A DNA stretch of 21,301 nucleotides from a virus. Shown here piece after piece: positions 496 to 19,219 of this stretch. The stretch spans positions 1-21,301 of IMG/VR virus record IMGVR_UViG_3300021960_005611. One strand, written 5' to 3'. Numbering within the stretch: the first letter of the stretch is position 1; every line of letters begins with the position of its first letter. The notes under the pieces are model-generated. The model saw only the letters and a program-made list of their open reading frames with translations, ran no database searches and was not told the origin of the DNA. The translations under genes and the position numbers were made by a program.

Positions 496-702
496 CTACT
501 TCTTCTCTTCTGGTATTTCTTTTTTTACTAATTCTGCAATTTTTTTGTTATAATGTGTTGTTAACACTTCGATTTTTTCTAGCTCAAGATTGTGTCTTAC
601 TTTAGAGGCCTGAATTTCTTGTCTTACCACTAGGTAATTTTGTAATTCTGGACTCAATTTTGCGACATCAAACTCTTTGCCATCAATCATTACTGTATTC
701 AT
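496..702 (-). CDS. Small conserved phage protein (DUF6447-like?)
   Basis: 68 aa. It begins MNTVMIDGKEFDVAKLSPE, followed by a charged, probably helical segment and a Lys/Glu-rich tail (KKEIPEEKK). The 'IDGKE(F/Y)D..LS' opening resembles small phage proteins assigned to DUF6447, but this is a tentative recollection. No catalytic or membrane feature is visible. The start is firm: AGGAGA at 708-713 and two TATAAATA motifs at 716-731 stand just upstream. It heads a short late unit with the 113-aa structural protein and lies divergent to the plus-strand nitroreductase-like gene. Confidence 0.65.
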   Translation of the reverse strand: MNTVMIDGKEFDVAKLSPELQNYLVVRQEIQASKVRHNLELEKIEVLTTHYNKKIAELVKKEIPEEKK

Positions 703-747: not shown

Positions 748-1344
748 ATGTCTGTAAAATCGTTATTAAAACTTCGTAACACTACAAAATGGTGGTCAAA
801 AAAAGAGGTAGAACAACATAAACTCGATTATGTATTAGACTGTATATATAGGTCTCCTTCAAAACAACTAAAATACAATTATAAAGTTTTGATATTTGAT
901 GAAACGAAAAAATGCAAACAAATAAAAGATTGGTTATATTGGGAACACACATATTGTTTGAATAAAATTAGAGGCGCTAAAGGTAACGGTTTAAGAAGAT
1001 ACAATGGACAGGTGTTAGCACCTATTGTCTTAGCGTGGGCTTCTGAAAAAAATAATTTAGAAGTCATAGAAGATATCATGGTCAGCTCAACAACTGCATT
1101 ACTGGCCGCTGAAGATATAGGTTTAAATACCGGGTTTAATGGTTGTTTAGAATCGAGAGAGTTAGGACAAAAAATAGGCGAAACTCATGTACATATGTTA
1201 TTAGGTTTAGGATATGCTGACAAAATTGATACCGAACCTACTAGAAAAGTATTCAAAGATGGTGTAGAAATGGGATATGACCTAGGAAATGGTGTACAAG
1301 GTGAACGCATAAATAATAGTATAGGAGAATATTATGACAGATAA
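748..1344 (+). CDS. Nitroreductase-like flavoprotein
   Basis: 198 aa, the usual length for the FMN-binding nitroreductase fold. An N-terminal segment 'CIYRSPSKQ' (residues 32-40) followed by 'YKVLIFD' matches the family's R/S-P-S-x-x-N-x-Q-P-[WY]-x-v region in weakened form. 'VLAPIVLAWA' (89-98) fits the core strand. 'SSTTALLAAEDIGLNTGFNGC' (113-133) is the helix and glycine loop that contacts flavin, and 'LLGLGYAD' (151-158) is the typical late strand. The family reduces nitro groups, quinones or enones with NAD(P)H. The substrate here is unknown. It is the first gene of the plus-strand cassette and overlaps the following oxygenase gene by 11 bp. The call rests on motif order, not a search. 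Confidence 0.65.
   Translation: MSVKSLLKLRNTTKWWSKKEVEQHKLDYVLDCIYRSPSKQLKYNYKVLIFDETKKCKQIKDWLYWEHTYCLNKIRGAKGNGLRRYNGQVLAPIVLAWASEKNNLEVIEDIMVSSTTALLAAEDIGLNTGFNGCLESRELGQKIGETHVHMLLGLGYADKIDTEPTRKVFKDGVEMGYDLGNGVQGERINNSIGEYYDR
1308..1328 (+). promoter_or_regulatory. CATAAATA plus ribosome binding site before the oxygenase gene
   Basis: CATAAATA at 1308-1315 is followed by AGGAGA at 1323-1328, five bases before the ATG at 1334. Late-promoter spacing would start the message near 1321 and leave a 13-base leader containing the whole AGGAGA. The ribosome binding site is convincing. The promoter, which lies inside the end of the upstream gene, is a candidate only. Confidence 0.5.
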
Positions 1345-2041
1345 TGTAATAGTGAAACCAGGTGTAAGTGGTCAGTCAGTAAAATTTAATGCGAAAAAAG
1401 TAGATTGTGAAACTCTAGCCAATGAAGTAGCGTTGTTAAGTTTAGGTGATTGGGAAGGCCTAAAGGTAAAAGTTAATTGTGGTCAATACTCAAAACAAAT
1501 TAAAGAATTTGAAAACGATTGGGTAGATTATTTACCTAGAACCGATAAGATTAATAATCGTAAAGCACTATCTCTTTTAAATTTACCAGGCAAAACTCAT
1601 CAAGACAATCCTAGTTTAGCACAAGCGTGTGTAGAGGCGAATAGATATGTCAATGAGGCAGAGTTTAATGTACCTACTAAAGTTTATAATAAGTTAGAAT
1701 GTTTACACCCACTTTTAAATATATTTCCTACTTTAGGCAGAACCTTTTTAGTAAAATGTGGCGAGGGCGCTTACTTTCATCCACATAGAGACCATCCAAC
1801 TATGCCTAGAGATTCATTTAGAATAGCTGTGTTTTTGCAAGATTGTGGTCCTATGCAATTCGATTGGATACATGGCCATGAGAAAATGTTAATTGAACAT
1901 GGCAGACCATATTATGTAAATACAAAAAGAGTACATAGAACTATGAGTTGGTCTAAAAACAGTACACATTTAATTATTAATGTACCATTCACTTCGGAGA
2001 ATGTAACAGCTTTAATTGCTAATTTACAACATGCCCACTAG
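1334..2041 (+). CDS. 2OG-Fe(II) oxygenase, Asp/Asn beta-hydroxylase-like
   Basis: 235 aa. The iron site of a double-stranded beta-helix oxygenase is visible: 'YFHPHRDHP' (147-155) gives His151-Arg-Asp153, and 'KRVHRTMSW' (198-206) gives the distal His201. Arg163 in 'DSFRIAVFL' and the closing strand 'THLIINVPF' fit the fold. The order HxD, then R-I-x-V-F-L, then VHR, resembles aspartyl/asparaginyl beta-hydroxylase-like proteins, which hydroxylate side chains using 2-oxoglutarate and O2. The substrate is unknown. The start overlaps the nitroreductase-like gene by 11 bp and has a strong AGGAGA site. Confidence 0.75.
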   Translation: MTDNVIVKPGVSGQSVKFNAKKVDCETLANEVALLSLGDWEGLKVKVNCGQYSKQIKEFENDWVDYLPRTDKINNRKALSLLNLPGKTHQDNPSLAQACVEANRYVNEAEFNVPTKVYNKLECLHPLLNIFPTLGRTFLVKCGEGAYFHPHRDHPTMPRDSFRIAVFLQDCGPMQFDWIHGHEKMLIEHGRPYYVNTKRVHRTMSWSKNSTHLIINVPFTSENVTALIANLQHAH

Positions 2042-2714
2042 GTCGCAAGAACATAAAGATTTCATATTATCAAATTTAGAAGAAACATACTATATAGAAA
2101 ATTTTATATCAAAAGAAGATATAGAAACATTAAGTATGGAATACTATGGTAATATTAATAAAGTTTACAAAAATACAGGACCTATAACCTCTGATATAAA
2201 ACATTATGACTCGCCAACACTAAACAAAATTATAGATAAAATATCTAAATTTTATCCTAATAGTAAAGTAATGTCTGGTATGTTTTTTGAAGTAAAACAA
2301 CCACATATCATACACAATGACGATAAACATAGTTTACCACTAACATATAAAGCCTTTAATATACCCTTAGAGTATGACACAAAAGAAGAACCATATTTGT
2401 GTTTTTTTGACCAAGTATATCTTGACGGACCTAGTAAGTTTTTTAACGGTGAAGAAAATATAGAAACCTTTTACAACACTATTGTATATGATTATGAAAA
2501 TGTTGTAGGCAAATCAAATATACCATTTGATACTATAATGAAAGAAAAGTATCTAACTCATTTAGAAGATAAATGGTTGAAAGGTTTAAGTTTTAACTCC
2601 GCTCACGCATGGCGACCTGGTAATGCAATTGTTTTTGATTGTGTAAGATTGCATTGTGGAAGTAACTTTAAAGGTAAAAAATTAGGGTTGAGTATATTTA
2701 CAGAATATCTTTAG
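2031..2714 (+). CDS. Putative 2OG-Fe(II) oxygenase
   Basis: 227 aa from the ATG at 2031. A TTG at 2016 would add five residues but has no better ribosome site. A cupin-type iron site can be read as 'PHIIHNDDKH' (His95-Asn-Asp97) and 'VRLHCGSNF' (distal His208). These are followed by 'KLGLSIFTEYL', where the Lys may bind 2-oxoglutarate. 'WRPGNAIVFDC' before the distal His is the usual late strand and turn ('pGd.v.fd..') of prolyl-4-hydroxylase/phytanoyl-type enzymes. The substrate is unknown. It overlaps the upstream oxygenase gene by 11 bp and its 3' end overlaps a minus-strand gene by 17 bp. The oxygenase call is motif-based. Confidence 0.65.
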   Translation: MPTRSQEHKDFILSNLEETYYIENFISKEDIETLSMEYYGNINKVYKNTGPITSDIKHYDSPTLNKIIDKISKFYPNSKVMSGMFFEVKQPHIIHNDDKHSLPLTYKAFNIPLEYDTKEEPYLCFFDQVYLDGPSKFFNGEENIETFYNTIVYDYENVVGKSNIPFDTIMKEKYLTHLEDKWLKGLSFNSAHAWRPGNAIVFDCVRLHCGSNFKGKKLGLSIFTEYL

Positions 2715-3312
2715 TGCCATCTAAAGTAAACATTAAAGCTATCCTAGCCTTTTTACTCATAGACACGACACCGTGAGTATAACCTATATTCAAGAAATTG
2801 GCAACTCCGTTTTTAAGATTGTAAGCTTCTATTTTATTATTTCTTTTAAATAGGTTAATAACATTATTGTCACCATAGATAGGAACAATTACTCTTACAC
2901 CATATGATACATCATAATCAACATGCCATGGTATCATTTTACCTGGTGCTAATTTTGTAATTCTAATTCTACTTGCTGGTGATTTACATTGTGTAACAAT
3001 CTCCTCAAAATAACTACCTTTATAATCATCTGTAGGTACATTATATAAATGTTCTTCTCTTCTTTTCAATCTTTCTTTAATACTAGTGGTGTGAGGTAAT
3101 ATCTCACTAGGTGTAGTTAAGTTGATTTGTTCAAAGTTATCATAAACATCTTTAACTAATTCCTCATGATTCATACATAACATAGGATTAGCAGACCTCA
3201 CATCTGTAAACTTTTCAGCCAACTCATCTGTAGCTTTTCTTAACTTATCTAAATCTATATTAAGATTTAATTCTTTTACAGTAGGTAAACTGTGTTTAGA
3301 TAATTTGTCCAT
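2698..3312 (-). CDS. 2OG-Fe(II) oxygenase / Asp-Asn beta-hydroxylase-like
   Basis: 204 aa from the ATG at 3312; a second ATG stands at 3315. AGAGGA at 3319-3324 supports one of these over a TTG at 3327. The core is 'GKMIPWHVDYD', with His130-Val-Asp132. It is followed by 'YGVRVIVPIYGD', the distal 'YTHGVVS' (His180) and 'KKARIALMF' with Arg190. This is the His-x-Asp...His...Arg pattern of small 2OG-Fe(II) hydroxylases. 'RITKLAPGKMIPWHVD' is very like the aspartyl/asparaginyl hydroxylase family ('R.t.l.pG..i..H.D'). It is the last gene of the long minus-strand chain, overlapping the GNAT-like gene by 17 bp and the opposite-strand oxygenase gene by 17 bp. Confidence 0.75.
   Translation of the reverse strand: MDKLSKHSLPTVKELNLNIDLDKLRKATDELAEKFTDVRSANPMLCMNHEELVKDVYDNFEQINLTTPSEILPHTTSIKERLKRREEHLYNVPTDDYKGSYFEEIVTQCKSPASRIRITKLAPGKMIPWHVDYDVSYGVRVIVPIYGDNNVINLFKRNNKIEAYNLKNGVANFLNIGYTHGVVSMSKKARIALMFTLDGTKDIL
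2709..2726. terminator. Weak symmetric hairpin at the convergent junction
   Basis: CTTTAG, six unpaired bases, then CTAAAG: a 6-bp stem centred where a plus-strand and a minus-strand gene meet tail to tail. It lacks a T-run on either side and the stem is mostly A-T pairs. It is at best a weak bidirectional terminator and may be chance. Confidence 0.2.
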
Positions 3313-3877
3313 CATGTTTCCTCTCAATTATATAATCTGATTTAGGTTGCCAATCATAATTCTCTTGTAGTCTTATGCTATAAACATATTGCAACATATC
3401 ACCAGTCTTAAATAAAAAATTCTTCTCTACTTGTAATTTTGTGTACCACTCACCATTTATATGTTCTTTAAATGCCTTATCTGTCATTTGTTTTCTTCTT
3501 TGATAAAGGTTATTTATGGCTTTGTTTTTTATGTCATGTGTAATATATAATATCTTAAATCCTTTATCTCTTGACCACTTGATTTGATGTTCTCCCATAA
3601 TCAAACCACAATGACTAAATCTATATTTCTTTAGTATATGATAACGACATACTCTTACTGCAATATTAGGGTCATTTGTATAATGAGATTTTTCAGCAGC
3701 TGATATTGATATTAATTTATTATCTTTAAAACACATCCATGTTTCTATGTCTTTATTATCGGGGTCATACTTATCATAACCGATACTATTATTACCCTCT
3801 TTAAATGATTGTTGTCTAAACTTTTCAATCAATGGCCAATACTCATTAGGGTTTTCTGAATATCTTTTTACTTCCAT
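3296..3877 (-). CDS. GNAT-like acyltransferase (tentative)
   Basis: 193 aa. The middle reads like an N-acetyltransferase fold: a strand with polar ends ('VRVCRYHILKKYRF', 74-87), then 'HCGLIMGEHQIKWSRDKGFKILYITHD' as a helix and strand, and 'NKAINNLYQRR' (118-128) resembling the family's 'N..a..LYek.GF' motif. The acetyl-CoA loop (Q/R-x-x-G-x-G/A) is not clean. GNAT is therefore a fold-level suggestion and the protein may be an inactive or divergent member. GGAAAG precedes the ATG. The start overlaps the upstream flavin-reductase-like gene by 10 bp. Confidence 0.5.
   Translation of the reverse strand: MEVKRYSENPNEYWPLIEKFRQQSFKEGNNSIGYDKYDPDNKDIETWMCFKDNKLISISAAEKSHYTNDPNIAVRVCRYHILKKYRFSHCGLIMGEHQIKWSRDKGFKILYITHDIKNKAINNLYQRRKQMTDKAFKEHINGEWYTKLQVEKNFLFKTGDMLQYVYSIRLQENYDWQPKSDYIIERKHDGQII
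3319..3324 (-). promoter_or_regulatory. Ribosome binding site deciding the start at 3312/3315
   Basis: AGAGGA on the minus strand. It is three bases from the ATG at 3315 and six from the ATG at 3312. It rules out the TTG at 3327, which lies upstream of it. Confidence 0.6.
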
Positions 3878-4494
3878 TTATCTTTCCAATTATTATATGA
3901 ACTTATCATATCATCTTTATTTTTCCATTGTTTTGATTCATGTTTTTCAATGGTCACCAAATCTTTTTTGAATTCATTAATATATTTACATTCTTCACTT
4001 ATGAAACTCATGTTTTCTCGATACAGATTATCCCAACAATCATTTTTTACAAAGCTCTTTACAACATTACCACCCATTTTTTCTAATAAGTGTTTAGTCA
4101 TGTCAAAGTGTCTATTACCAGCCTTTTTTGATGGTGTAAATGTAATTAGTATTATAGGTTTATGTGAAAATCCGTATGATGTTCCTAGATTATTATTCAT
4201 GTTAGATTTTACAACTAACCAATCTAACGCATTTTTAAAAACTGCTGAATAATGGCCTGTGTGTTCAGGAACAGCAAAAACAAAAACATCTGTGTCATGC
4301 AAATCTTTATCAAATTGATTTATACCATCATCAACTTTACCATCAACATCATTTGTATCAATCAGTTTCATATTATAATCACACATAGATTTACATACAT
4401 GAAATTTAATATGGTCATCCATCATTAGAAGACCTTTACTATTCATACTATCTAAGTTATTACTAAAACTAAATGCTGAAATTTTACAAGACAT
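3868..4494 (-). CDS. NADPH-dependent FMN reductase-like flavoprotein, copy A
   Basis: 208 aa with a flavodoxin-like fold. The strand 'DVFVFAVPEHTGHYSAVFKNALDWL' (69-93) is the diagnostic region of the NADPH-dependent FMN/quinone reductase family, with Pro-Glu-His where most members have Pro-Glu-Tyr. 'KPIILITFTPSKKAGNRH' (112-129) is the next strand and flavin loop. Such enzymes reduce FMN or quinones and can feed electrons to partner enzymes. It is paralogous to the copy at 6146-6784, with shared 'FKNA(L/M)DWLVVK' and an equivalent 'SHKP....TF(T/S)PS'. The ATG at 4494 is preferred; a TTG at 4500 has AGGA at a better distance and cannot be excluded. It overlaps the upstream TauD-like gene. Confidence 0.75.
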   Translation of the reverse strand: MSCKISAFSFSNNLDSMNSKGLLMMDDHIKFHVCKSMCDYNMKLIDTNDVDGKVDDGINQFDKDLHDTDVFVFAVPEHTGHYSAVFKNALDWLVVKSNMNNNLGTSYGFSHKPIILITFTPSKKAGNRHFDMTKHLLEKMGGNVVKSFVKNDCWDNLYRENMSFISEECKYINEFKKDLVTIEKHESKQWKNKDDMISSYNNWKDKWK

Positions 4495-5365
4495 ATTCAA
4501 AATGATTCCTATTTTTATACCAACATGCTGACCTCAATAATTCTCTAGTTTGGTCTTTTGCTATCGTAGGCCGTCTATGAATGGTTGTTAACTGGTCCAT
4601 TAATAAAATATCACCAGGTTTCCATTTATGTTTATAAGTGTACTTGTCAGTTATAAAGTCTTTATATATTTCATTATATAATTCTTTGTGAGAAAAGTTT
4701 AACAAACCGACAAATTCTGTAATTTCATAAGGTTGAAAAAATATACCCTCAATACCTAAAGGATGATTTGGTACTAGTCTATGTTTATCTAATACACCTC
4801 GCCACTCTTTAAATCTTTTATCAACTAAATCAGCTCTACTTTTATTTCTATTTTGTTTTATACCGTTTAAAACTGTATCAGTATATTTTTTATCCCAATC
4901 AGGTTTCCATGGTTGATTTATAGGAATACCACCCGAATGATTTAATTTAGTGTATAAACTTTTATATAACTCTTTAGTTTTTGCACTTAATTTTTTCATA
5001 TAAGGAATACTAGTACATATCCATGTTTCGGTATCATATGTTATTGTTTTACCATACAAACCTATAACTTCTTGAGCATCAGCATGAGGTACCAAATTAC
5101 TGTGCCAATCCAATTCATCATCTGCAAATAGACCTTGATTTTCTCCGTCTATCTTTTTATTTGTTACACGCCAAAAGTATTCACTATGTTTCTTATCGGT
5201 ACACCAAATATCAGGACTTATATGATAACCAAATGCAAGATTCCATTCTGCAAATTCTTCAGGACTTGCACCACTATTTTCAATCACCAAATAACCATGC
5301 TCAGCAACCATTTTATTTGCGTCAATAGGGTCTATTGATTCTAATTTTTTATTTTGTAAAATCAT
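4484..5365 (-). CDS. TauD/TfdA-like 2OG oxygenase, copy A, with His-Ser-Asn iron motif
   Basis: 293 aa, close to the 280-300 of TauD/TfdA dioxygenases. N-terminal 'HGYLVIENSG' (23-32) matches the family's 'G...i.n' opening. 'DELDWHSNLVPH' (83-94) stands where 'WH(S/T)D' is expected and gives His88-Ser-Asn90. 'KPGDILLMDQLTTIHRR' (249-265) is the classic late strand with distal His263, and Arg278 in 'LLRSACWY' fits the 2-oxoglutarate-binding Arg 15 residues later. The Asp-to-Asn change at the iron site is shared with the paralogue at 7372-8181. Activity may be altered or lost. Partner genes are the FMN reductase just downstream and another oxygenase just upstream, with overlaps of 11 and 17 bp. 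The substrate is unknown. Confidence 0.75.
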   Translation of the reverse strand: MILQNKKLESIDPIDANKMVAEHGYLVIENSGASPEEFAEWNLAFGYHISPDIWCTDKKHSEYFWRVTNKKIDGENQGLFADDELDWHSNLVPHADAQEVIGLYGKTITYDTETWICTSIPYMKKLSAKTKELYKSLYTKLNHSGGIPINQPWKPDWDKKYTDTVLNGIKQNRNKSRADLVDKRFKEWRGVLDKHRLVPNHPLGIEGIFFQPYEITEFVGLLNFSHKELYNEIYKDFITDKYTYKHKWKPGDILLMDQLTTIHRRPTIAKDQTRELLRSACWYKNRNHFEYVL

Positions 5366-6164
5366 CTTTTGTTATTACATAATCCTTATATTTTTCTATA
5401 CTTCGTTCTAACAAATCATGCCATTTAGGAATATTTAAAGTACCCATTGGCATTAATTGAATTCTTTTTGTAGGGTGGTAACCTGCGTCCGCTCCATGTT
5501 CATGTACTGTACCGTCATATGCCATAGCATTTGTTTCTGGTGGCAACATAGGATATATTCTTGTTTGAGCATGGTCTTTTGTAAAATATAAATGTTCTTT
5601 TTCCCAATCAGTAACTTTACTCCACCTAACTCTAACTTGACTAGGTTCTTGGTATTTTAAATCTTCTCTTGCCTTATCGTATTCATCATAATGGGGACCA
5701 ACACCGTGTGTATCTCTACCCACAAATGCCAACCACCTTACATTATCATAGGGCATTGAATCAATAAATTTTACTACATCTGGAAACTCATCATGTACAA
5801 AGTCACACCACTCACCTTTAACATCTCCATAATATGCACCATTCGTAAATAACATTAATGCTCTGTAGTCGTGATTAATATATGTACTATGTCTTGAACT
5901 ATTAATATCAGATTTGTCTTTGTCAAACCATACATGTTTTTTATCATTAATACTTGTCCATCTTTTCCACATCAAATCTAAATCTAAATTTACATAAGGT
6001 ACATCTAATGGTGTCCATACAACACCTTTATAACCATTATAATGATTATTATAATTTACCTTAGTATGTTCAGGATTTTCTGGATTTTCTCTGTCAATAT
6101 ATTTTTGTATATCATCACCAGGCAATTTTTCATCTATATTCTTTACTATTCTATATCTTGCCAT
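5349..6164 (-). CDS. Putative 2OG-Fe(II) oxygenase, larger beta-hydroxylase-like form
   Basis: 271 aa. A likely iron site is 'GVGPHYDEYD' (154-163), His158-Tyr-Asp160, with a distal His at 221 or 223 in 'GTVHEHGAD' and Arg234 in 'TKRIQLMPMG'. 'RWLAFVGRDTHG' before the HxD fits the strand that precedes the iron motif in beta-hydroxylase-like proteins. The N-terminal 100 residues are rich in Tyr, Asn and Asp and unrecognised. Functional assignment is by motif geometry only. A GTGGGA sequence near the ATG at 6164 may serve as a weak ribosome site. The gene overlaps its neighbours by 19 and 17 bp, sitting between FMN-reductase copy B and TauD copy A. Confidence 0.6.
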   Translation of the reverse strand: MARYRIVKNIDEKLPGDDIQKYIDRENPENPEHTKVNYNNHYNGYKGVVWTPLDVPYVNLDLDLMWKRWTSINDKKHVWFDKDKSDINSSRHSTYINHDYRALMLFTNGAYYGDVKGEWCDFVHDEFPDVVKFIDSMPYDNVRWLAFVGRDTHGVGPHYDEYDKAREDLKYQEPSQVRVRWSKVTDWEKEHLYFTKDHAQTRIYPMLPPETNAMAYDGTVHEHGADAGYHPTKRIQLMPMGTLNIPKWHDLLERSIEKYKDYVITKDDFTK

Positions 6165-6784
6165 TTTTTATCCCACTCTTCATACAAATGAATCCATTTA
6201 CATATTGTTCTTACATCCGTATGTTCAGTAATTTTGTTTTTCTTTTCATAAGGTTCTGATAATACTTTATTCATATTTTCAGCGTCTTCTTTTACCCATT
6301 CATAGTTGCCTGGAACACATTTTTCCCAACCATGATTAAATACAATATGGCCGTGGTTTACAACTTGAAAATTTTTTAATAAGTCTTTCATCATATTTGC
6401 ATGTCTACCACCATTTTTATTACTAGGTGAAAATGTAACACTAAACATTGGTTTATGACTGATACTATAAGGTATATTTAAATCTTTATCATAGTTTGTT
6501 TTTACAACTAACCAATCCATAGCATTCTTAAATTGTCCACAATATCCACCCATGAATTCAGCAACACAAAAAACATAAGCGTCTGCGTCAATTAATGCCT
6601 TGTCAAACTCTATTACACTATCAGGTACATTACCATCAGCCATGTTACTATCTAATACAGGTATACAAAAATCTCTTAAATTAATAACTTTGTAAAATGG
6701 AATAAATTTATCTAAAAGTTTTAAACCTCTACCTTGCATAGAGTTAGAAGCATTACTAAAATTTACTGCTACAATCTTATTCAT
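6146..6784 (-). CDS. NADPH-dependent FMN reductase-like flavoprotein, copy B
   Basis: 212 aa from the ATG at 6784, chosen over a GTG at 6796 because AGGTGA at 6793-6798 is correctly spaced. The N-terminus 'MNKIVAVNFSNASNSMQGRG' is the phosphate-loop region ('i...s.S.r..S'). 'DAYVFCVAEFMGGYCGQFKNAMDWL' (68-92) is the flavodoxin-like core. It has Ala-Glu-Phe where the family has Pro-Glu-Tyr, so the flavin-side residues differ from copy A. 'HKPMFSVTFSPSNKNGGRH' follows as in copy A. The two copies share an 18-bp identical DNA stretch over DWLVVK (6500-6517 and 4207-4224). Role: presumably reduced-flavin supply or quinone reduction; the partner is unknown. Confidence 0.7.
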   Translation of the reverse strand: MNKIVAVNFSNASNSMQGRGLKLLDKFIPFYKVINLRDFCIPVLDSNMADGNVPDSVIEFDKALIDADAYVFCVAEFMGGYCGQFKNAMDWLVVKTNYDKDLNIPYSISHKPMFSVTFSPSNKNGGRHANMMKDLLKNFQVVNHGHIVFNHGWEKCVPGNYEWVKEDAENMNKVLSEPYEKKNKITEHTDVRTICKWIHLYEEWDKKWQDIE

Positions 6785-7385
6785 ATGATACTTCACCTAC
6801 CAATCTTTTACCACAAAATATTTCTGCCTCTACAATAGTCTTTTCTTTAAAATTATATTGTTGCATATCATTTGTGATTGATTTTAATTTTAATTTTTCT
6901 TCATAATATGTTTGTTCGTGATATGGCTCTTGTATAATCGCATTTTTGCAATCATAAAATTTCATTATGTTTGTGAACATTTTATAATGGTCTTTTTCAT
7001 ACAATAAAACACCACTAAAAATTATACAATCTACTTTGAAGTTAACATCTTTTAATGTTGCCCAATCTCTAACTTCGTATTGATAGTTTGGCCACCGTTT
7101 TTGTGCATATTCAATAGGTTCAGGTGAGGTGTCAAAACCATAATACTGATAATCTTTATAAGACTTTTCATGTAGAAAATCATTTACAGGTCCATGCCTG
7201 CAACCTATATCAACAATACCTTTGTAATTGTTTTTAATGATAATATCGGCTTGTTTTTCAAAAATAGGCCTTGCCTCTAGTGTGTCAAGATAAGACATAT
7301 CTCTTAATGCATATCTTCTTTTCATAGGTATTTCACCGGTCATGGTGCCTATCTTTGGCCAAGGTACTTCTTTACTTGTAAACAT
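6777..7385 (-). CDS. Class I SAM-dependent methyltransferase
   Basis: 202 aa. Motif I is 'GIVDIGCRHGPVNDF' (56-70), the glycine-rich SAM loop. 'YYGFDTSPEPIEYAQKRW' (81-98) carries the acidic residue (Asp85) that binds the ribose, 'YEVRDWATL' (103-111) is the next loop and 'VDCIIFSGVLLY' (118-129) is motif IV. This is a complete small Rossmann methyltransferase of the Methyltransf_11/25 kind. The C-terminal third is shorter than usual and contains 'IQEPYHEQTYYEEKL', possibly substrate-facing. The substrate is unknown; neighbouring oxygenases and glycosyltransferases suggest a small molecule or sugar. The start at 7385 overlaps the TauD-like gene upstream by 14 bp, and the 3' end overlaps the FMN reductase by 8 bp. 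Confidence 0.8.
   Translation of the reverse strand: MFTSKEVPWPKIGTMTGEIPMKRRYALRDMSYLDTLEARPIFEKQADIIIKNNYKGIVDIGCRHGPVNDFLHEKSYKDYQYYGFDTSPEPIEYAQKRWPNYQYEVRDWATLKDVNFKVDCIIFSGVLLYEKDHYKMFTNIMKFYDCKNAIIQEPYHEQTYYEEKLKLKSITNDMQQYNFKEKTIVEAEIFCGKRLVGEVSYE
6793..6798 (-). promoter_or_regulatory. Ribosome binding site deciding the start at 6784
   Basis: AGGTGA on the minus strand, eight bases before the ATG at 6784. A GTG at 6796 overlaps this site and is therefore unlikely as a start. Confidence 0.55.
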
Positions 7386-9575: not shown

Positions 9576-9579
9576 ATTA

Positions 9580-10820: not shown

Positions 10821-11520
10821 AATGAATTACCTTTACATCTGTGTGCCAATCTTCATCTAATAGATATGGATTACCCGACCATTTTTTATAATCATGTTCA
10901 ATGCATGTTTGTATATAAAAGTCATTTTCATGCCACTTTACAATATGTTTTTCAGGAAACATTGAGGTTTTAGTTTTGTTATCTTCTAACATCTTTTGTA
11001 CAAAGTGTTGTTCGCCATTTACAGGTCCACTTGTTGTACCATTTTTAATAAAATATTCTTGCCAATAGTCAATATCTTTTTCAAATTTGTCAGAAATGTA
11101 TTGATGTTCACCATTTTTGAATTTGTATATGCTACCACTCAATGCAAACTTTTTATTTTCTTTATCTTCTCTCCATCTCCACCAAAATCTATGTGTGCCT
11201 CTAAATTCATTATCTTCAATATCATCAAATAAAAAATCACAATTTCTAATTATGACTTGGTCAATATCCATCAATATAATATCTTCTTCTTTAACAATAC
11301 CTTTTTTAAAAAAATCTAACTTATACCATTGTAGTTTTTTATCATCATTTTCTAACTCAATAATGTTTATATCTTCATCTAAAAACTCAGTATCATAATC
11401 TGTATAACAATAAAACTTAAAAGGCTTAGTCGTGTGTTTCTTCAAACTTCTAAAAATATTATTTACATCTTTAGTACCATATTTTGGTCCTTTTTTTAGT
11501 AGTGTACAAATACTAGTCAT
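10807..11520 (-). CDS. Glycosyltransferase-like protein (GT-A, family A)
   Basis: 237 aa from the ATG at 11520; a TTG at 11532 would add four residues without a clear ribosome site. 'KPFKFYCYTDYD' (32-43) is the usual second strand. 'DIILMDIDQVIIRN' (80-93) carries Asp85-Ile-Asp87. 'YKFKNGEHQYISDKF' and 'NGEQHFVQKM' parallel the shorter gene at 9580-10137. The final 'VKVIHYAGN' gives the late His expected in GT8-like enzymes. The extra length relative to its paralogue is mainly at the N-terminus. It overlaps the upstream methyltransferase by 8 bp and the downstream glycosyltransferase by 14 bp. Confidence 0.7.
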   Translation of the reverse strand: MTSICTLLKKGPKYGTKDVNNIFRSLKKHTTKPFKFYCYTDYDTEFLDEDINIIELENDDKKLQWYKLDFFKKGIVKEEDIILMDIDQVIIRNCDFLFDDIEDNEFRGTHRFWWRWREDKENKKFALSGSIYKFKNGEHQYISDKFEKDIDYWQEYFIKNGTTSGPVNGEQHFVQKMLEDNKTKTSMFPEKHIVKWHENDFYIQTCIEHDYKKWSGNPYLLDEDWHTDVKVIHYAGN

Positions 11521-12187
11521 TTCTTTTACCAATCACCATAAATCTTTTGTATTCTTTATTGTTTCTACCTTTTAATTTTAATCTACTATAATAATAAGGT
11601 TTTGTAATATCAGATTGTTTCATCAATTCATAGTAATCTTCAACACAATTTACATGTTCTCTTTCATCTTTCATGTTGTTTGATTGTAAGATATATAATA
11701 CTTGTTTATCATTTGAAAAAGATATTGACGACATAGGAAACATATGTTCGCAAGATGTATTAATACAAATGTTTGTATATCTTTGAGAATAATCTATAAA
11801 ATTAATATCTTCTTTTATATAATTAATATTAACATCATTATAACTTCTACCTAAAAACTTTCTACCTATATCTAAAGCGTCTTCGTCCATGTCAATTAAT
11901 TGTATATCTTCAACACCTTTTATATTGTCAACAATCAAAGGTACTAATACATTGCCATACCACGAACCTAATACGGTAATTTTTCTAGTTGATATGTTAG
12001 GCTTATCTTTTAATACTAAAAGTAGTTGCTCTATCAACCACTTTTTACAAGTAACTTGATTGCCTGAAAAACTATTGATGAAGTCTTTTAATCTATGTGG
12101 ATATTCTCGTAATACAACTCTGTTTAGTGTATCACCAAAAAGACCTAAATCATAATTAAATTTTATTTCTACCTTCGGCTCTTCCAT
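11513..12187 (-). CDS. SAM-dependent methyltransferase-like protein
   Basis: 224 aa from the ATG at 12187; a GTG at 12193 is the alternative. 'RKITVLGSWYGNVLVPLIV' (68-86) reads as motif I with Gly-Ser-Trp-Tyr-Gly replacing the commoner GxGxG. 'DIQLIDMDEDALDIGRKFL' (94-112) has the acidic ribose-binding residue, 'NYIKEDI' follows, and 'ICINTSCEHM' (140-149) occupies the motif IV position. The Asn-Thr-Ser-Cys-Glu-His stretch is unusual for a small-molecule methyltransferase and resembles what I recall of some phage-encoded methyltransferase-like proteins. The substrate is unknown. It overlaps the upstream glycosyltransferase by 32 bp, one of the longest same-strand overlaps here. Confidence 0.65.
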   Translation of the reverse strand: MEEPKVEIKFNYDLGLFGDTLNRVVLREYPHRLKDFINSFSGNQVTCKKWLIEQLLLVLKDKPNISTRKITVLGSWYGNVLVPLIVDNIKGVEDIQLIDMDEDALDIGRKFLGRSYNDVNINYIKEDINFIDYSQRYTNICINTSCEHMFPMSSISFSNDKQVLYILQSNNMKDEREHVNCVEDYYELMKQSDITKPYYYSRLKLKGRNNKEYKRFMVIGKRND

Positions 12188-12758
12188 TTTCACTTAATAT
12201 AATCGCTTTCTTTCTATCAAATTTTTCAAAGTTATGTATAGCATGTTGTACATATTTGTCTGGCCAAAAAGTATACCAATCTTTATGAACATGATAAAAC
12301 CATTTATCTGTGCCTTCAAATAACATTGATAATTTTTCTTTATCTTTTTCAACTGCTTGATAAATGTGGTCGCACTCATCATTATTAAATGCAAACACAC
12401 CACTATTTACATTACAAGATGTATATGTTGACTTATTTTTTTTCATCTTTTCATTATCAAACCAATGTACATGACTTAACATAACTTTACCTTTGACTTT
12501 ATTCTTTTTATAATAGTCAATAAGAATATTTAGGTCACCTTGGATAATGATATCTATATCTAAAAATAAACAATCGCCTAGATTTAACCTCTTATCAAAT
12601 AATGTCATTTTTTTCCAGGTGTGTTTGTAACTCATATCAATAGGAAAAGTTTTTATACCAGGTATTTCTCTATCAGAAAAACAAAAATCAATTGGTAATT
12701 TTTTTAAATCATCTACACTATACTTGTCTCCCCAGAAAGCAGTTACTATAGAGACCAT
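12156..12758 (-). CDS. Glycosyltransferase-like protein (GT-A, family B)
   Basis: 200 aa. 'MVSIVTAFWGDKYS' is a typical opening strand. 'HTWKKMTLF' followed by 'GDCLFLDIDIIIQGDL' (61-76) carries Asp67-Ile-Asp69. 'SCNVNSGVFAF' (114-124) is the Asn-Ser-Gly-Val loop near the sugar in GT8-like enzymes, and 'WPDKYVQHAIHNF' (165-177) may supply the later metal-binding His. This is the most canonical of the four glycosyltransferase-like genes. It follows the radical SAM gene with a 13-bp overlap. Donor sugar and acceptor are not evident. Confidence 0.72.
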   Translation of the reverse strand: MVSIVTAFWGDKYSVDDLKKLPIDFCFSDREIPGIKTFPIDMSYKHTWKKMTLFDKRLNLGDCLFLDIDIIIQGDLNILIDYYKKNKVKGKVMLSHVHWFDNEKMKKNKSTYTSCNVNSGVFAFNNDECDHIYQAVEKDKEKLSMLFEGTDKWFYHVHKDWYTFWPDKYVQHAIHNFEKFDRKKAIILSENGRAEGRNKI

Positions 12759-13975
12759 GGTGTTGCCTTTGCATTAATATACCATTTTTCAAACTCTGGA
12801 TAAACATCTAACAAATTTGTATCTCTAATACTATCAAGATACCTGTATCTATCCATAGCGTCTAAAAATCTAGTATCATTTCTTTCTTTATCGTTTCTTA
12901 AAGTGTGTATATGGTGAGCCATATTATAGAATTTTTTGTTACTATATTTTTTAATATACATTTCAGACACATCTTTAGGAACATTAACTGCTCTAGCCCA
13001 CACAGGAAAAGAAAGATTATTATTTAATTTTGCTTGCATACCAAATGTATCTTTCACAAAGGTGTGAATTTCATCTAAGTATCCAATGTTTAATAATTGA
13101 ACTGTTGTACTGAAAGATAGTTTTACTTTAGGAATTTGACCTATGTTTTTCATAGTTTCAACTTTTTGTTCCCATATAGTTCCGGTTCTTATATATTCAT
13201 CAATCTTGCCAACACCATCAATAGAAAACATTATGGTCACTTTTCTAAAATATTTAAATAAAGCAAACAACTCAAAATTTTCAGTCATGCCATTGGTTAC
13301 AAATCTCAACTCTAAATGTCTTGACATATTGTTGTCAACAATCCATTGTACAAATCCTGCAACTTTAGGATATAATAATGGTTCGCCACCTACAATTTCT
13401 ATTTGATTAGTAGTAGGTAATATTTTCTTTAAGTCATCTCTAAACTTATCCATATCCATTTTTTTAGATTGGTCTATTATAATTGGTCCTTTCCAATCTC
13501 TAGGCAAAGTACCCAATCTTTTTTGTTCAGCTGCTATTTTTGATGATACTAGAGGATTACACATAGTACATTTTAAATTACACAAATTTCCAAATATCTT
13601 AATTTTAAAAGAGTCCATATCAGTAGGTTCCAAGTCTACATTTTTGTCGTCTTTTATTTTTTCTAATGTTCTTTGTTTTAATGTATTTGTTTTATCTAAA
13701 TTTGTTGTGTAGTAATTTTGTAATCTTTTTGAATTGCCTGAGTTTTTTTCATTTGCTATACACTTATAACAAGTGTCTTTAATTAAGTCAGTAGGTTCAC
13801 CAGGTTTCAACATATCATATCGCAATTGTTTCATATGTTTACCATTGAAAAAGTCCATAGGCGATACATCAACAATATTTTCTGATTGTTTTTTAGCAAT
13901 ACAACATGCCTGATAATTACCAGCAACTGTAGTTGAAAATTGTACAAAAGGTAAAGTACAGTAAGGCTTAATCAT
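12746..13975 (-). CDS. Twitch-type radical SAM protein
   Basis: 409 aa. The radical SAM cluster motif 'GNLCNLKCTMCNP' supplies Cys132, Cys136 and Cys139 (CX3CX2C), and 'IEIVGGEPLLYP' (192-203) contains the Gly-Gly-Glu-Pro SAM motif. The N-terminal region has a separate cysteine set: 'YCTLPF' (Cys6), 'ACC' (Cys24, Cys25) and 'CYKC' (Cys69, Cys72). This fits the twitch-domain radical SAM proteins, in which an auxiliary iron-sulphur site precedes the barrel. The reaction is unknown. Relatives with auxiliary clusters often act on peptides or sugars. A good GGAG site lies seven bases before the ATG. It overlaps the PP-loop gene by 8 bp. Confidence 0.85.
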   Translation of the reverse strand: MIKPYCTLPFVQFSTTVAGNYQACCIAKKQSENIVDVSPMDFFNGKHMKQLRYDMLKPGEPTDLIKDTCYKCIANEKNSGNSKRLQNYYTTNLDKTNTLKQRTLEKIKDDKNVDLEPTDMDSFKIKIFGNLCNLKCTMCNPLVSSKIAAEQKRLGTLPRDWKGPIIIDQSKKMDMDKFRDDLKKILPTTNQIEIVGGEPLLYPKVAGFVQWIVDNNMSRHLELRFVTNGMTENFELFALFKYFRKVTIMFSIDGVGKIDEYIRTGTIWEQKVETMKNIGQIPKVKLSFSTTVQLLNIGYLDEIHTFVKDTFGMQAKLNNNLSFPVWARAVNVPKDVSEMYIKKYSNKKFYNMAHHIHTLRNDKERNDTRFLDAMDRYRYLDSIRDTNLLDVYPEFEKWYINAKATPWSL

Positions 13976-14636
13976 TCAACACTCCAAGTGCCCATTGTTT
14001 TTCTACACACCACCAACACCAGTTTTTAGCATTTGGTCCTTGTGTTTCGGAACAATGTTTTGTCCAATTTTCAGTTTTATCACCAGAACATATACAACTA
14101 TGTGTTAACGGATATATTTCATTCATTAAGAAACTATCTTTTTTATATTCAGAAACAATAAATTTTTTATCTACATTGTACCAAGGACATATTGTATAAC
14201 TTTCGCCTACTAGTGTAATATGAGTTAATTGGTCTACATCTCTTTCAGGTTTATAATAATTATATTTTGTTTGTATTTCTTTAGGTGGAGATAATGTGAT
14301 ACCTCTATAAAAAACATCTATATTATACTGTCGTTTATACTCTATAGTTTTACTTTTAAAAGTTGGTATTTTTGTTTCACCATCTGTGTAAATAAATTTT
14401 AATCTGGTATAAGAAGAACTAAATTTATCGAATAGTTTTTTACAGATATTGTCTGACCTAAAGCTGGCATATGGGTCACACACAGGTTCATCACCTGTAT
14501 TAATAAAAATATTTACTTTGTCTAGTTTACGAGATATCTTTAATTCATTTAACAATTTATAAATTAAAAGTGTCGAATCCATTCCTGAAGAATGGTTGAT
14601 TAATATATTTTTTGCACTATCCGGAACATATATCAT
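13968..14636 (-). CDS. PP-loop ATP pyrophosphatase, QueC-like
   Basis: 222 aa. 'ILINHSSGMDSTLLIYKL' (11-28) is the N-type PP-loop (Ser-x-Gly-x-Asp-Ser) that binds ATP and activates a carbonyl by adenylation. 'FINTGDEPVCDPYASFRSDNIC' follows as the second strand. The C-terminus has a likely zinc cluster in 'THSCICSG' (Cys181, Cys183), Cys195 and 'CWWC' (Cys207, Cys210), closely like the 'T.SC......C..C..C' end of QueC, which makes 7-cyano-7-deazaguanine. No QueD, QueE or transglycosylase is visible in the window, so a deazaguanine role is not shown. Amide or nitrile formation on another substrate is equally possible. ATGA overlap with the upstream radical SAM gene. Confidence 0.72.
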   Translation of the reverse strand: MIYVPDSAKNILINHSSGMDSTLLIYKLLNELKISRKLDKVNIFINTGDEPVCDPYASFRSDNICKKLFDKFSSSYTRLKFIYTDGETKIPTFKSKTIEYKRQYNIDVFYRGITLSPPKEIQTKYNYYKPERDVDQLTHITLVGESYTICPWYNVDKKFIVSEYKKDSFLMNEIYPLTHSCICSGDKTENWTKHCSETQGPNAKNWCWWCVEKQWALGVLND

Positions 14637-15814
14637 TTTCTAAGGCCTTCATGTTGTCGTACTGTAGTAAATTTATCTTTACCACATTGCCTAGAACAAA
14701 TGCGACAAGGCGACATGTCCCAACTTAAAGGTAATATATGTTGATACCAGTCTTCTTTTAGAATATCTATAAAGTCTTTTTCCCATGCAGGAATTAAATC
14801 TCTATGGTCTAACATCTCGTTTCCCATATGTTGATATTTTGTTTTTTCAGTTACATTATTAATTCTATGATATTCATTTGAACCAATCCAACAACAAGGA
14901 TGAACATAACCCATACAATCTAAGTAAACATCATTTCTTGCTTTTGTATGACAATATATTTTACCGGCAGATTCTTTTCTTGATTTTTCAGGATCCTCAA
15001 CAAATTTATTTTGATTTTTATTTGTTTGTATGTTAATTTCATCAGCAGATAAATCTTCAACTTTTTTACCGTCCCACAACTTATCTGTCCTATTTAAATC
15101 TTTAAATTCTTGTACATCCGTTTTTTCAGGTTGATATCTCATTACACTATAATTTCTTTTTTGCCAAGTATAATCAATACTATCTTTGCCATAAAATCTT
15201 TGTGTATTGACAGCAGTAAATCTTACAAATCCTAAATCTTTAGCAATTTGTTTACATTCTTCTTCTTGATGTTGATTGTGACCAAACCTAATAAATGACC
15301 ATTCAGCTCTTCCACCACCTTTCATAAATGCTGTAGCATTTTCTATAACTCTATGATATCTTGTATTTGTTCTATAGATATGGTGTGTGTCTTCTAATCC
15401 ATCAATTGCAAAATTCACTAGACCATTATAGGGAGCTAATAGTTTACCATAGTCATACCACCATTTGGCAGACCTCATACCTCCGTTAGTATAAATTTTT
15501 AAACTATCATCTTTGTTTTTTAAATGCCAATCTGTTAAAACATTAGTTAATGTGTATTCTGATATTTCGTAAATATCTTTAGCAAACATTGGGTCGCCCA
15601 TGTTACCACAGAATAATACAGCTTTGGCTTGTTTTTGGTAGTTTTGAAATATTTTTTTATATCTGTCAATGGTGATTTCGGTCAGACACAATTCTGGTCT
15701 TTCTTCTAACTCACCTTTCCGGTTAATTCTATTTCTTGAACATTGTACACATCTAGCGTTGCACTTGTCCGTTATTTCTATATGAAATGATAAAGGTTTT
15801 TCAAAGTCAAACAT
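14633..15814 (-). CDS. Radical SAM protein with SPASM-like C-terminal cluster
   Basis: 393 aa. 'ITDKCNARCVQCSRN' (14-28) supplies Cys18, Cys22 and Cys25 for the radical SAM cluster. 'LFCGNMGDP' (67-75) stands in the GGEP position. The C-terminal third has the SPASM-like set Cys288, Cys300, Cys307/308, then Cys370, Cys373 and Cys377 in 'CRICSRQC', matching sites for auxiliary iron-sulphur clusters. Proteins of this build modify peptides (for example peptide maturases) or alcohol groups. The substrate here is unknown and no small precursor gene lies beside it. The start at 15814 follows a 15-bp gap after the 173-aa gene, with AGGA about 13 bases upstream. Confidence 0.85.
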   Translation of the reverse strand: MFDFEKPLSFHIEITDKCNARCVQCSRNRINRKGELEERPELCLTEITIDRYKKIFQNYQKQAKAVLFCGNMGDPMFAKDIYEISEYTLTNVLTDWHLKNKDDSLKIYTNGGMRSAKWWYDYGKLLAPYNGLVNFAIDGLEDTHHIYRTNTRYHRVIENATAFMKGGGRAEWSFIRFGHNQHQEEECKQIAKDLGFVRFTAVNTQRFYGKDSIDYTWQKRNYSVMRYQPEKTDVQEFKDLNRTDKLWDGKKVEDLSADEINIQTNKNQNKFVEDPEKSRKESAGKIYCHTKARNDVYLDCMGYVHPCCWIGSNEYHRINNVTEKTKYQHMGNEMLDHRDLIPAWEKDFIDILKEDWYQHILPLSWDMSPCRICSRQCGKDKFTTVRQHEGLRK

Positions 15815-15829
15815 AACATGATTTAGTCC

Positions 15830-16351
15830 TTAAAATTGTGAAGTATATGAAATAATATCTTTAAAGGTTTCTGCTTTTCTAAGTTTAGCTTTTAATTCTC
15901 TATTATCTGATTCTTTCACAATAGGCAATTCAAATGCAGCTAGTTTAGCTTTGAACATCTGCTCTTTAATCAATTCATTATCATACTCTAATTTGTCATT
16001 AAAGATTTTCGACACCAATTCTTCCAGTGTGTAATCAATTTTAACTTCCACCTCTTTTACATTCGGTGCATTTGATTTAGATACTTTGATAATGCCTTCT
16101 TGTTTGGCAATATCAATCATTTCTTCTTTGAATCGTTTTCTTTGTTCATTACACCAATTATCAGTATAATGATGAATTTCGGGTAATGATTGAATAGATA
16201 GTAAATTTTTGTAATCAGGATGATTTTCGTCTAACTCTACGATATGTGGAAAAACTTCATTTTCTTTATCACCTTTTACAAAAACCTCAATTTGTGTTCT
16301 TTCATTATCACAAAATCTTGCTGAAACAAAATTGTCTTTTGTAATTTCCAT
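15830..16351 (-). CDS. Unrecognised 173-aa phage protein
   Basis: No known domain recognised. The N-terminal half looks beta-rich ('TQIEVFVKGDKENEVFPHIVEL', about residues 19-40), the middle has 'HHYTDNWCNEQRKRF', and the C-terminal half is charged and probably helical ('EELVSKIFNDKLEYDNELI'). The ending is 'FKDIISYTSQF'. No signal peptide or membrane segment is visible. It sits between an epimerase and a radical SAM enzyme but lacks enzyme motifs. It might be a substrate, adaptor or assembly protein; this is guesswork. The start is firm: TAATG overlap by one base with the epimerase stop, and GAGG eight bases upstream. Confidence 0.6.
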   Translation of the reverse strand: MEITKDNFVSARFCDNERTQIEVFVKGDKENEVFPHIVELDENHPDYKNLLSIQSLPEIHHYTDNWCNEQRKRFKEEMIDIAKQEGIIKVSKSNAPNVKEVEVKIDYTLEELVSKIFNDKLEYDNELIKEQMFKAKLAAFELPIVKESDNRELKAKLRKAETFKDIISYTSQF

Positions 16352-17076
16352 TAGTTTATCCTCTTTCCTATTTTGTTATCTAAGTATTGAAACAAATTTA
16401 TTTTTGGTTTCCATCCATATTTAGTCAAGATAGAGATGTCAGCTTTATTATCTTTTCTCTCGGTTTCTGGTCCTAATTTACTAGAAAACGATAACTTACA
16501 ATAATTCATAATATCTACTATTTTATTTGATATTCCTGTACCCATATCAATAACACCTGTTTCATTTGTATTCATCATCAATATAATAGCTTCGCATAAG
16601 TCATCCACATGTATAAAATCTCTACTATGGTCAACATTAATATATGGCACCACACCTTTGATAATTTGTGGTATTAACATGTTCTCCCGACCATTAGGTC
16701 CGTAAGATGTAGTAAATCTCATACCTAAACTGTTATCTGGAGCAAAATGTTCTAGTGAAAATTTACTAAATGCATATGGATTTCTCCATGGTTCATGTGC
16801 TGTGCTTGAACTTGCATATAATATTCTGGAGTTTTTATAATGTTCAAATATTCTTCGACTAACAATAACATTTTGTTTCCAATATTCAGCTGGATTGTCT
16901 AAAGATATTCTTACACCTGATAGTCCGGCTAAATGAATTACCACATCTATATTATCAGGTAACTTACATGTTAATAAATCTTCACCTAATTTTAAATCTA
17001 AACAAGTAACATTATCTAATTTATTTTTTAAATTAGAGCCTATGAAGCCCTCACTTCCAGTCAATAATATATTCAT
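16351..17076 (-). CDS. NAD-dependent nucleotide-sugar epimerase/dehydratase (extended SDR), short
   Basis: 241 aa, against 300-350 for most family members. 'MNILLTGSEGFIGSNL' (1-16) is the GxxGxxG NAD-binding loop. 'DVVIHLAGLSG' (44-54) is the next conserved strand. 'YASSSTAHEP' with 'NPYAFSK' supplies the catalytic Ser and Tyr101-x-x-x-Lys105. 'SRDFIHVDDLCEAI' (151-164) is the family's RDF-hV-D segment. The active site is intact and the shortening lies mainly in the C-terminal substrate-binding part. It probably makes or alters a nucleotide sugar for the glycosyltransferases downstream. It is the first accessory gene after the tail genes, one base after the stop of the structural gene. Confidence 0.85.
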   Translation of the reverse strand: MNILLTGSEGFIGSNLKNKLDNVTCLDLKLGEDLLTCKLPDNIDVVIHLAGLSGVRISLDNPAEYWKQNVIVSRRIFEHYKNSRILYASSSTAHEPWRNPYAFSKFSLEHFAPDNSLGMRFTTSYGPNGRENMLIPQIIKGVVPYINVDHSRDFIHVDDLCEAIILMMNTNETGVIDMGTGISNKIVDIMNYCKLSFSSKLGPETERKDNKADISILTKYGWKPKINLFQYLDNKIGKRIN

Positions 17077-19218: not shown

Positions 19219-19219
19219 A

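What the first reader, a model, noticed from the sequence alone, without database searches (positions are those of the whole stretch)
748..17076. A 16-kb biosynthetic cluster lodged between phage tail genes
Structural genes lie on both sides (up to 702 and from 17078). Between them are 23 genes, almost all with enzyme motifs: six 2OG-oxygenase candidates, three flavin-enzyme candidates, two radical SAM enzymes, four glycosyltransferases, two methyltransferases, a PP-loop ATPase, a PLP enzyme, a desaturase, an epimerase and a GNAT-like protein. This is far beyond the usual one or two auxiliary genes and looks like a pathway for a decorated glycan, lipid or peptide. The product cannot be read from the sequence.
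Basis: partly seen in the sequence, partly recalled or inferred. Interest (0 to 1): 0.85.

Follow-up and report, generated by a model that had tools for sequence, protein, structure and literature searches.

The report
Travelling biosynthesis gene cassette in phages
A virus of abundant ocean bacteria carries 23 enzyme-type genes between its tail genes; about half belong to a gene set that moves as a unit between distant phages and also sits on chromosomes of predatory bacteria, so it very probably makes one specific, still unidentified, molecule or surface decoration.

Summary
The window is a 21.3-kb fragment of an uncultivated T4-like SAR11 phage (pelagimyophage). Between a tail-fibre-assembly gene and the VrlC baseplate gene lie 23 intact genes, nearly all enzyme-like, under purifying selection. 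The island type is known (the pelagimyophage 'host recognition cluster'), so gene number alone is not new.

What appears new is its structure. Half the genes belong to a conserved cassette: membrane desaturase, short PLP enzyme, TauD-like and AspH-like oxygenases, methyltransferase, FMN reductase, acetyltransferase. Three independent scans recover these together. Carriers include phages with portals only 25-53% identical but desaturases 79-84% identical. The same families cluster on chromosomes of two Bdellovibrionota genomes, partly in the same order; each genome's oxygenase and PLP-enzyme matches, and best desaturase matches, lie in that single locus. Among 50,697 phage records, the three core proteins tested occur only in Pelagibacter phage Mosig.

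The other half (glycosyltransferases, radical SAM, PP-loop) is variable between phages, though similar enzymes adjoin one bacterial cassette.

Best reading: a captured bacterial pathway that builds a modified amino- or acyl-containing group, probably attached to host envelope glycan to exclude rival phages. The pathway is well supported; product and purpose are inferred.

The parts
154..495 (-). g1: left flank, tail-fibre assembly protein
   Evidence: phrog_3304 / phrog_1084; 85% to Mosig, 47% to HTVC008M
496..702 (-). g2: small conserved flank protein
   Evidence: 91% to Mosig
748..1344 (+). g3: nitroreductase-like flavoenzyme
   Evidence: Pfam Nitroreductase E 4e-4, below cut-off
1334..2041 (+). 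g4: 2OG-Fe(II) oxygenase-like (HxD...H)
   Evidence: motif; 33% to a Mosig Asp_Arg_Hydrox-annotated protein
2016..2714 (+). g5: probable 2OG-Fe(II) oxygenase
   Evidence: motif only; homologues in L010, L013, L040, L044, L045, L060
2698..3327 (-). g6: AspH-type 2OG oxygenase, CORE
   Evidence: invariant HxD...H...R, mean column identity 80% over 20 relatives; model fold = 2OG hydroxylases of amino acids/nucleosides and AspH; bacterial homologue passes Pfam Asp_Arg_Hydrox cut-off
3296..3877 (-). g7: GNAT acetyltransferase-like, CORE
   Evidence: weak Pfam; 43% to a bacterial GNAT-SET fusion
3868..4500 (-). g8: flavodoxin-fold FMN reductase, CORE
   Evidence: FMN_red 6e-15
4484..5365 (-). g9: TauD-family protein (HxN motif)
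   Evidence: TauD 1.8e-19; 48% relative in Bacteriovoracaceae MAG
5349..6164 (-). g10: 2OG oxygenase-like
   Evidence: motif; homologues in 10 loci of the same cassette
6146..6796 (-). g11: FMN reductase, paralogue of g8
   Evidence: FMN_red 5e-17; 36% to g8
6777..7385 (-). g12: SAM methyltransferase, CORE
   Evidence: Methyltransf_25 7e-8; fused to FMN reductase in other phages; 62% family match in a bacterial operon
7372..8181 (-). g13: TauD-family protein with HxN, CORE
   Evidence: TauD 1.6e-20; Asn in 80/80 relatives
8165..8950 (-). g14: short fold-type-I PLP enzyme, CORE
   Evidence: profile hits HisC / Thr-P decarboxylase; model pLDDT 89, folds like Trp aminotransferase, HisC, alliinase
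8925..9575 (-). g15: membrane fatty-acyl-type desaturase, CORE
   Evidence: FA_desaturase 8.5e-10; all His boxes invariant in 23 relatives; nearest solved = SCD1
9580..10137 (-). g16: glycosyltransferase
   Evidence: phrog_1962
10134..10820 (-). g17: glycosyltransferase
   Evidence: phrog_1962
10807..11532 (-). g18: glycosyltransferase
   Evidence: phrog_1962
11513..12193 (-). g19: methyltransferase-like
   Evidence: Spermine_synth weak; related to a Mosig methyltransferase
12156..12758 (-). g20: GT8 glycosyltransferase
   Evidence: Glyco_transf_8 1.6e-6
12746..13975 (-). g21: twitch-domain radical SAM protein
   Evidence: NF033640 274 bits vs cut-off 170
13968..14636 (-). g22: PP-loop ATPase-like with C-terminal Cys motif
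   Evidence: SSGMDS motif; relatives in L046/L054 with SGGADS and CxxC; dN/dS 0.085
14633..15814 (-). g23: radical SAM protein
   Evidence: Radical_SAM 1.7e-9; dN/dS 0.063
15830..16351 (-). g24: unknown protein
   Evidence: 31% to Mosig, same position next to the epimerase
16351..17076 (-). g25: nucleotide-sugar epimerase-like
   Evidence: Epimerase 1e-21; phrog_540 7e-42
17078..18010 (-). g26: right flank, structural-like repeat protein
   Evidence: 74% to Mosig
18030..19001 (-). g27: right flank, structural-like protein
   Evidence: 66% to Mosig
18991..19236 (-). g28: virion structural protein
   Evidence: phrog_473 1e-23
19220..21301 (-). g29: VrlC C-terminal part (the DPLAQSF protein), cut by the fragment end
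   Evidence: phrog_358 1.5e-189; 52% to Mosig VrlC

Best explanation
The cluster is a composite metabolic island in the host-recognition region of a pelagimyophage. SHOWN: about half the genes form a core cassette (desaturase g15, PLP enzyme g14, TauD-like g13, AspH-like 2OG oxygenase g6, methyltransferase g12, FMN reductase g8/g11, GNAT g7, with extra 2OG oxygenases) that has been inherited and transferred as a unit among distant T4-like phages and exists on Bdellovibrionota chromosomes; the genes are intact. INFERRED: the cassette is one multi-step tailoring pathway for a small, amine- or amino-acid-containing aliphatic group. The PLP enzyme sets or removes an amine; the 2OG oxygenases hydroxylate or desaturate; the membrane desaturase unsaturates an acyl chain; methyl- and acetyltransferases cap it; FMN reductases supply electrons. 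MORE TENTATIVE: the variable half (four glycosyltransferases, epimerase, radical SAM enzymes, PP-loop ATPase) makes and attaches the sugar part, so the infected cell's envelope glycan or glycolipid is altered, which would block adsorption of competing phages.
For: Core as a unit: desaturase-anchored loci carry PLP 47, TauD 49, AspH-like 43, MT 49 of 58; AspH-anchored loci carry desaturase 45, PLP 45, TauD 45 of 50; MT-anchored loci carry TauD 51, PLP 46, desaturase 45 of 51. MT fused to FMN reductase in other phages. Bacterial clustering: in G087 and G013 (about 4 Mb each) all AspH-like, TauD and PLP hits and the best desaturase hits fall in one locus; of 369 genomes of the phylum the same two have the strongest AspH-like and PLP hits; G013 has GNAT-MT-2OG-FMN-TauD-AspH on one strand at 28-62% identity, same order as phage L033/L034 apart from single oxygenase insertions, about 5 kb from aroC/aroB/aroA. 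Transfer: portals 25-53% vs desaturases 79-84% identical. Selection: dN/dS well below 1 for all genes tested. Linked divergence r 0.47-0.69. Chemistry: folds like amino-acid and nucleoside hydroxylases and aminotransferases/C-S lyases. Envelope idea: glycosyltransferases, epimerase and the tail-fibre island; literature on serotype conversion (PMC7029224).
Against: No transporter, polymerase, ligase, acyl carrier protein or adenylation enzyme was recognised, so entry substrate and export are unknown. The variable half is not fixed to the core. No substrate or product is known for any of these exact families.
Confidence: 0.5

Rival explanations
1. The cassette makes a free small molecule (antibiotic-, toxin- or signal-like secondary metabolite) in the infected cell; the glycosyltransferase block is a separate neighbouring function.
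For: The bacterial clusters look like natural-product clusters (B12 radical SAM of KedN5/PhpK-like families, AsnB-like PP-loop enzyme, many oxygenases); a phage precedent is the S-SSM6a secondary-metabolite prediction (PMC7824862); the core also occurs in phages where no glycosyltransferase block adjoins it.
Against: No NRPS/PKS, carrier protein or exporter recognised; always under phage control in a lytic-type genome; pelagimyophage carriers have it beside tail-fibre genes.
Confidence: 0.28
2. The enzymes modify a virion protein, for example hydroxylate and glycosylate tail fibres.
For: Next to tail-fibre genes; AspH-type and prolyl-type 2OG folds; the GNAT homologue is fused to a SET domain, a protein-lysine methyltransferase fold.
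Against: Carriers of other contexts and bacteria lack the neighbouring tail gene; a membrane acyl-type desaturase and a PLP enzyme do not fit protein modification.
Confidence: 0.12
3. A hotspot that accumulates unrelated auxiliary genes, with no common pathway.
For: The region is hypervariable (PMC7029224) and the right half differs between phages.
Against: Reciprocal co-occurrence, gene fusion, conserved order and independent bacterial clusters.
Confidence: 0.06
4. DNA-base hypermodification pathway.
For: Oxygenases, glycosyltransferases, radical SAM and a PLP enzyme occur in such systems (general knowledge).
Against: No TET/JBP-type oxygenase, thymidylate-synthase-like or DNA-modification match in Pfam, PHROGs or NCBIfam.
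Confidence: 0.02

Closest known systems
Pelagibacter phage Mosig EXVC030M (MT647606), locus about 54.5-72.5 kb
   Same: Same flanks and same core genes at 77-94% identity
   Different: Has peroxiredoxin and a NodU carbamoyltransferase / DegT aminotransferase / MoaA-like block instead of the window's glycosyltransferase / radical SAM / PP-loop block; cluster not discussed in its genome announcement
Pelagimyophage host recognition cluster (mSystems 2020, PMC7029224)
   Same: Island beside VrlC with tail-fibre genes, GT8 glycosyltransferases and radical SAM cassettes
   Different: In the passages read, no desaturase/PLP/TauD/AspH/MT cassette, its transfer or its bacterial counterparts is described
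Jumbo cyanophage S-SSM6a-type secondary-metabolite cluster (PMC7824862)
   Same: Phage-borne cluster of 2OG oxygenases, methylases and sugar/amino-acid enzymes
   Different: That one is defined by carbamoyltransferases, a HemK-like methylase and an amino-acid halogenase; the core here has a membrane desaturase, PLP enzyme and FMN reductases
Cluster in Bacteriovoracaceae MAG JAFMBV010000002 (L088/L326) and G087 (L233/L327)
   Same: Same core families; in L326 largely the same order
   Different: Chromosomal, larger, with B12 radical SAM enzymes, a second desaturase and AsnB-like enzymes

Membership tests
Pelagimyophage host recognition cluster | Variable island bounded on one side by VrlC | tested here: met
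   g29 = VrlC C-terminus
Pelagimyophage host recognition cluster | Bounded on the other side by neck gene gp14 | not testable with these tools
   Fragment ends at g1; in Mosig and HTVC008M the neck genes lie beyond the fibre genes
Pelagimyophage host recognition cluster | Tail-fibre genes plus glycosyltransferases | tested here: met
   g1 fibre assembly, g16-g18 and g20 glycosyltransferases
S-SSM6a-type phage secondary-metabolite cluster | Carbamoyltransferase, HemK-like methylase and amino-acid halogenase | tested here: not met
   No such match in the window; a NodU-like carbamoyltransferase is in Mosig instead
O-antigen/capsule synthesis cluster | Glycosyltransferases and nucleotide-sugar enzyme | tested here: met
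   4 glycosyltransferases and an epimerase
O-antigen/capsule synthesis cluster | Flippase, polymerase or ligase | tested here: not met
   None recognised among the 23 genes
TauD/TfdA 2OG oxygenases (g9, g13) | Family profile match | tested here: met
   E 1.8e-19 and 1.6e-20, above cut-off
TauD/TfdA 2OG oxygenases (g9, g13) | HxD/E...H iron triad | tested here: not met
   HxN in 80/80 of the g13 family and in g9; aligns with an Asp of ScoE in its HxD motif; activity unknown
SCD-type membrane desaturases (g15) | Three His boxes | tested here: met
   HRxxxH, HRxHH and HxxHH invariant
Fold-type-I PLP enzymes (g14) | Schiff-base Lys, PLP-binding Asp and fold | tested here: met
   K152 and D124 invariant; fold match
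NF033640 twitch radical SAM (g21) | Curated score | tested here: met
   274 vs 170 bits
DNA hypermodification systems | TET/JBP oxygenase or base-modifying enzyme | tested here: not met
   No match
RiPP cluster | Precursor peptide next to the maturase | not tested
   ORFs under 60 aa were not surveyed

The most novel reading that the evidence does not exclude
Distant marine phages share, by horizontal transfer, a complete bacterial biosynthetic pathway for an undescribed class of metabolite or lipid/glycan decoration. It includes oxygenase-like TauD proteins whose iron-binding Asp is replaced by Asn throughout the family, and it is also used by predatory Bdellovibrionota.
Probability: 0.45. 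Interest if true: 0.85.

Novelty: new variant of a known kind. Interest (0 to 1): 0.67.

Why it matters
Phage auxiliary genes are usually explained one at a time. Here a many-gene cassette is kept together, under purifying selection, in phages of very abundant marine bacteria and in bacterial chromosomes, so a phage-encoded multi-step pathway becomes testable. Mosig, a cultured phage, carries the core, while HTVC008M, isolated on the same host strain, has no such cluster at the corresponding site, which gives a natural pair for comparative lipidomics and metabolomics.

Tried and rejected
Chance neighbourhood: rejected for the core by reciprocal scans and bacterial clusters. Decaying genes: rejected. 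Anti-phage defence: PADLOC gives only superfamily-level hits (methyltransferase, viperin-like radical SAM). DNA hypermodification: no supporting family. RNA elements and tRNAs: none. Halogenase reading of TauD: a WHTG motif search hit only an unrelated VWA-like protein; the TauD motif is HxN. PP-loop g22: no PDB sequence match and no similarity to a QueC-like bacterial protein. g6 has no sequence relative in the PDB. Bacteroidetes genomes searched with the PLP profile gave only general aminotransferases. Papers naming this cassette: none found with the terms tried. Roitman et al. 2018 on cyanophage desaturases was not available.
Full report
What the window is. The 21,301-base window is a complete IMG/VR virus record, itself probably a genome fragment. 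The only close DNA match among 50,697 phage records is Pelagibacter phage Mosig EXVC030M (84% over 22% of the window), a T4-like SAR11 phage (Kyanoviridae). The DPLAQSF protein at the right end is the C-terminal part of VrlC. The left flank is a tail-fibre-assembly family.

Observation. Twenty-three genes occupy 748-17076 with 99.9% coding density and overlapping ends. Profile searches confirm most enzyme calls; the GNAT, PLP and some 2OG calls are weak in Pfam and rest on homologues, motifs or folds. Every gene with a usable relative shows dN/dS well below 1 (0.00-0.36), including the PP-loop gene (0.085) and both radical SAM genes (0.06-0.08).

The site. In HTVC008M the two flanking genes are about 2.4 kb apart with no metabolic genes between them. 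In Mosig they are about 20 kb apart around a related cluster. A scan with the left flank gene gave 34 loci with at least 4.5 kb on the cluster side; 10 hold at least three core genes and the others hold other enzyme blocks (examples). This is the hypervariable 'host recognition cluster' of pelagimyophages described in 2020 (PMC7029224), where glycosyltransferases were read as O-antigen modification against superinfection.

A core cassette. A scan of viral contigs with the desaturase g15 gave about 65 loci at 73-100% identity. Annotation and clustering show the same partners: PLP enzyme (g14 or an alternative form), TauD (one or two copies), AspH-like g6, methyltransferase g12, FMN reductase, often a GNAT, a peroxiredoxin and further 2OG oxygenases. 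Independent scans with g6 and g12 recover the same set: g6-anchored loci have desaturase 45/50, PLP 45/50, TauD 45/50; g12-anchored loci have TauD 51/51, PLP 46/51, desaturase 45/51. These counts include related contigs and best-80 limits. Five loci have a methyltransferase ORF of about 425 aa; the two checked are FMN-reductase-methyltransferase fusions. Pairwise divergences of desaturase, TauD, AspH and MT are correlated (r 0.47-0.69).

Horizontal movement. Carriers have different neighbours. Three long carriers with a T4-type portal have portals 25-53% identical but desaturases 79-84% identical. One portal is nearest to PA5oct-like jumbo phages, another to phage C48C1. Among named phages, the g15, g13 and g6 proteins were found only in Mosig.

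Bacterial counterparts. A genome scan with the desaturase profile found a 57% homologue in a Bacteriovoracaceae MAG. A search of 369 genomes of that phylum with the PLP profile gave this genome (G013, E 3e-118) and a second (G087, E 4e-49) far ahead of the rest; the AspH-like profile gave the same two on top (3e-76 and 3e-39; next 7e-19). Within each roughly 4-Mb genome, all AspH-like and TauD matches, the PLP match and the best desaturase matches lie in one locus. G013 has, on one strand, GNAT (43%), MT (62%), 2OG (28%), FMN reductase (42%), TauD (59%) and AspH-like (55%), then more oxygenases, a B12 radical SAM enzyme, PLP enzyme (52%) and two desaturases; chorismate synthase, 3-dehydroquinate synthase and EPSP synthase lie about 5 kb away, so the contig is most likely chromosomal. 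The GNAT-MT-FMN-TauD-AspH order equals that of phage L033/L034 apart from single oxygenase insertions. G087 adds a second example with a GNAT-SET fusion and, directly beside it, glycosyltransferase-like and radical SAM genes related to g21 and g23 (22-27%).

Mechanism. Shown: families, linkage, conservation, transfer and intactness. Inferred from fold and family: g6 resembles free amino-acid and nucleoside hydroxylases and AspH; g14 resembles aminotransferases and C-S lyases; g15 has all the motifs of acyl desaturases. The most economical reading is a tailoring pathway for an amine- or amino-acid-bearing aliphatic group. Attachment to an envelope glycan or glycolipid by the adjacent glycosyltransferases, and a role in superinfection exclusion, fit the island's context and earlier literature but are not shown. 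A free secondary metabolite is the main rival and is close in plausibility.

An oddity. The g13-type TauD proteins have HxN, not HxD/E, in 80 of 80 members; g9 and the bacterial relatives examined keep it. The Asn aligns with the Asp of the HxD motif in ScoE (the role of that Asp as iron ligand is from general knowledge). Whether these proteins bind iron or have another chemistry is unknown.

Novelty. Phage-borne clusters of oxygenases and sugar/amino-acid enzymes have been proposed before (S-SSM6a-type; PMC7824862), and the island type is known. This core composition, its transfer between distant phages and its bacterial counterparts were not found in the literature searched. Hence 'new variant of a known kind'.

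Noticed in passing
window 7372-8181, 4484-5365 and about 80 relatives: TauD-family proteins with HxN in place of the HxD iron motif, invariant in the g13 family.
   Followed up: partly
L061:9677-10960, L045:6929-8203 (also L044, L051, L060 by length): Gene fusion of the FMN reductase and the methyltransferase of the cassette.
   Followed up: yes
L233:10491-11495: Bacterial GNAT homologue of g7 fused to a SET domain, next to TauD, AspH-like and PLP genes.
   Followed up: partly
L044:10310-11422; L234, L238, L240, L242, L327: A radical SAM protein 58-64% identical between phage contigs L044/L045 and Bdellovibrionota clusters.
   Followed up: no
L002 (Mosig) 25991-36306: In the slot of the window's glycosyltransferase/radical SAM block, Mosig has a NodU-like carbamoyltransferase, DegT-type aminotransferase and MoaA-like radical SAM genes.
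   Followed up: partly
L245, L255, L261, L269, L277, L287: Other host recognition islands carry a second desaturase type (about 39-46% to g15) without the full core, suggesting alternative cassettes.
   Followed up: partly
L055, L056, L087: A different cassette with the g15-type desaturase, a B12 radical SAM protein and a second desaturase; L087 is a contig binned as Bacteroidetes but looks viral.
   Followed up: no
L045 contig (G002), portal at 86247-87614: A core-carrying contig whose portal is closest to PA5oct-like jumbo phages, not to pelagimyophages.
   Followed up: partly
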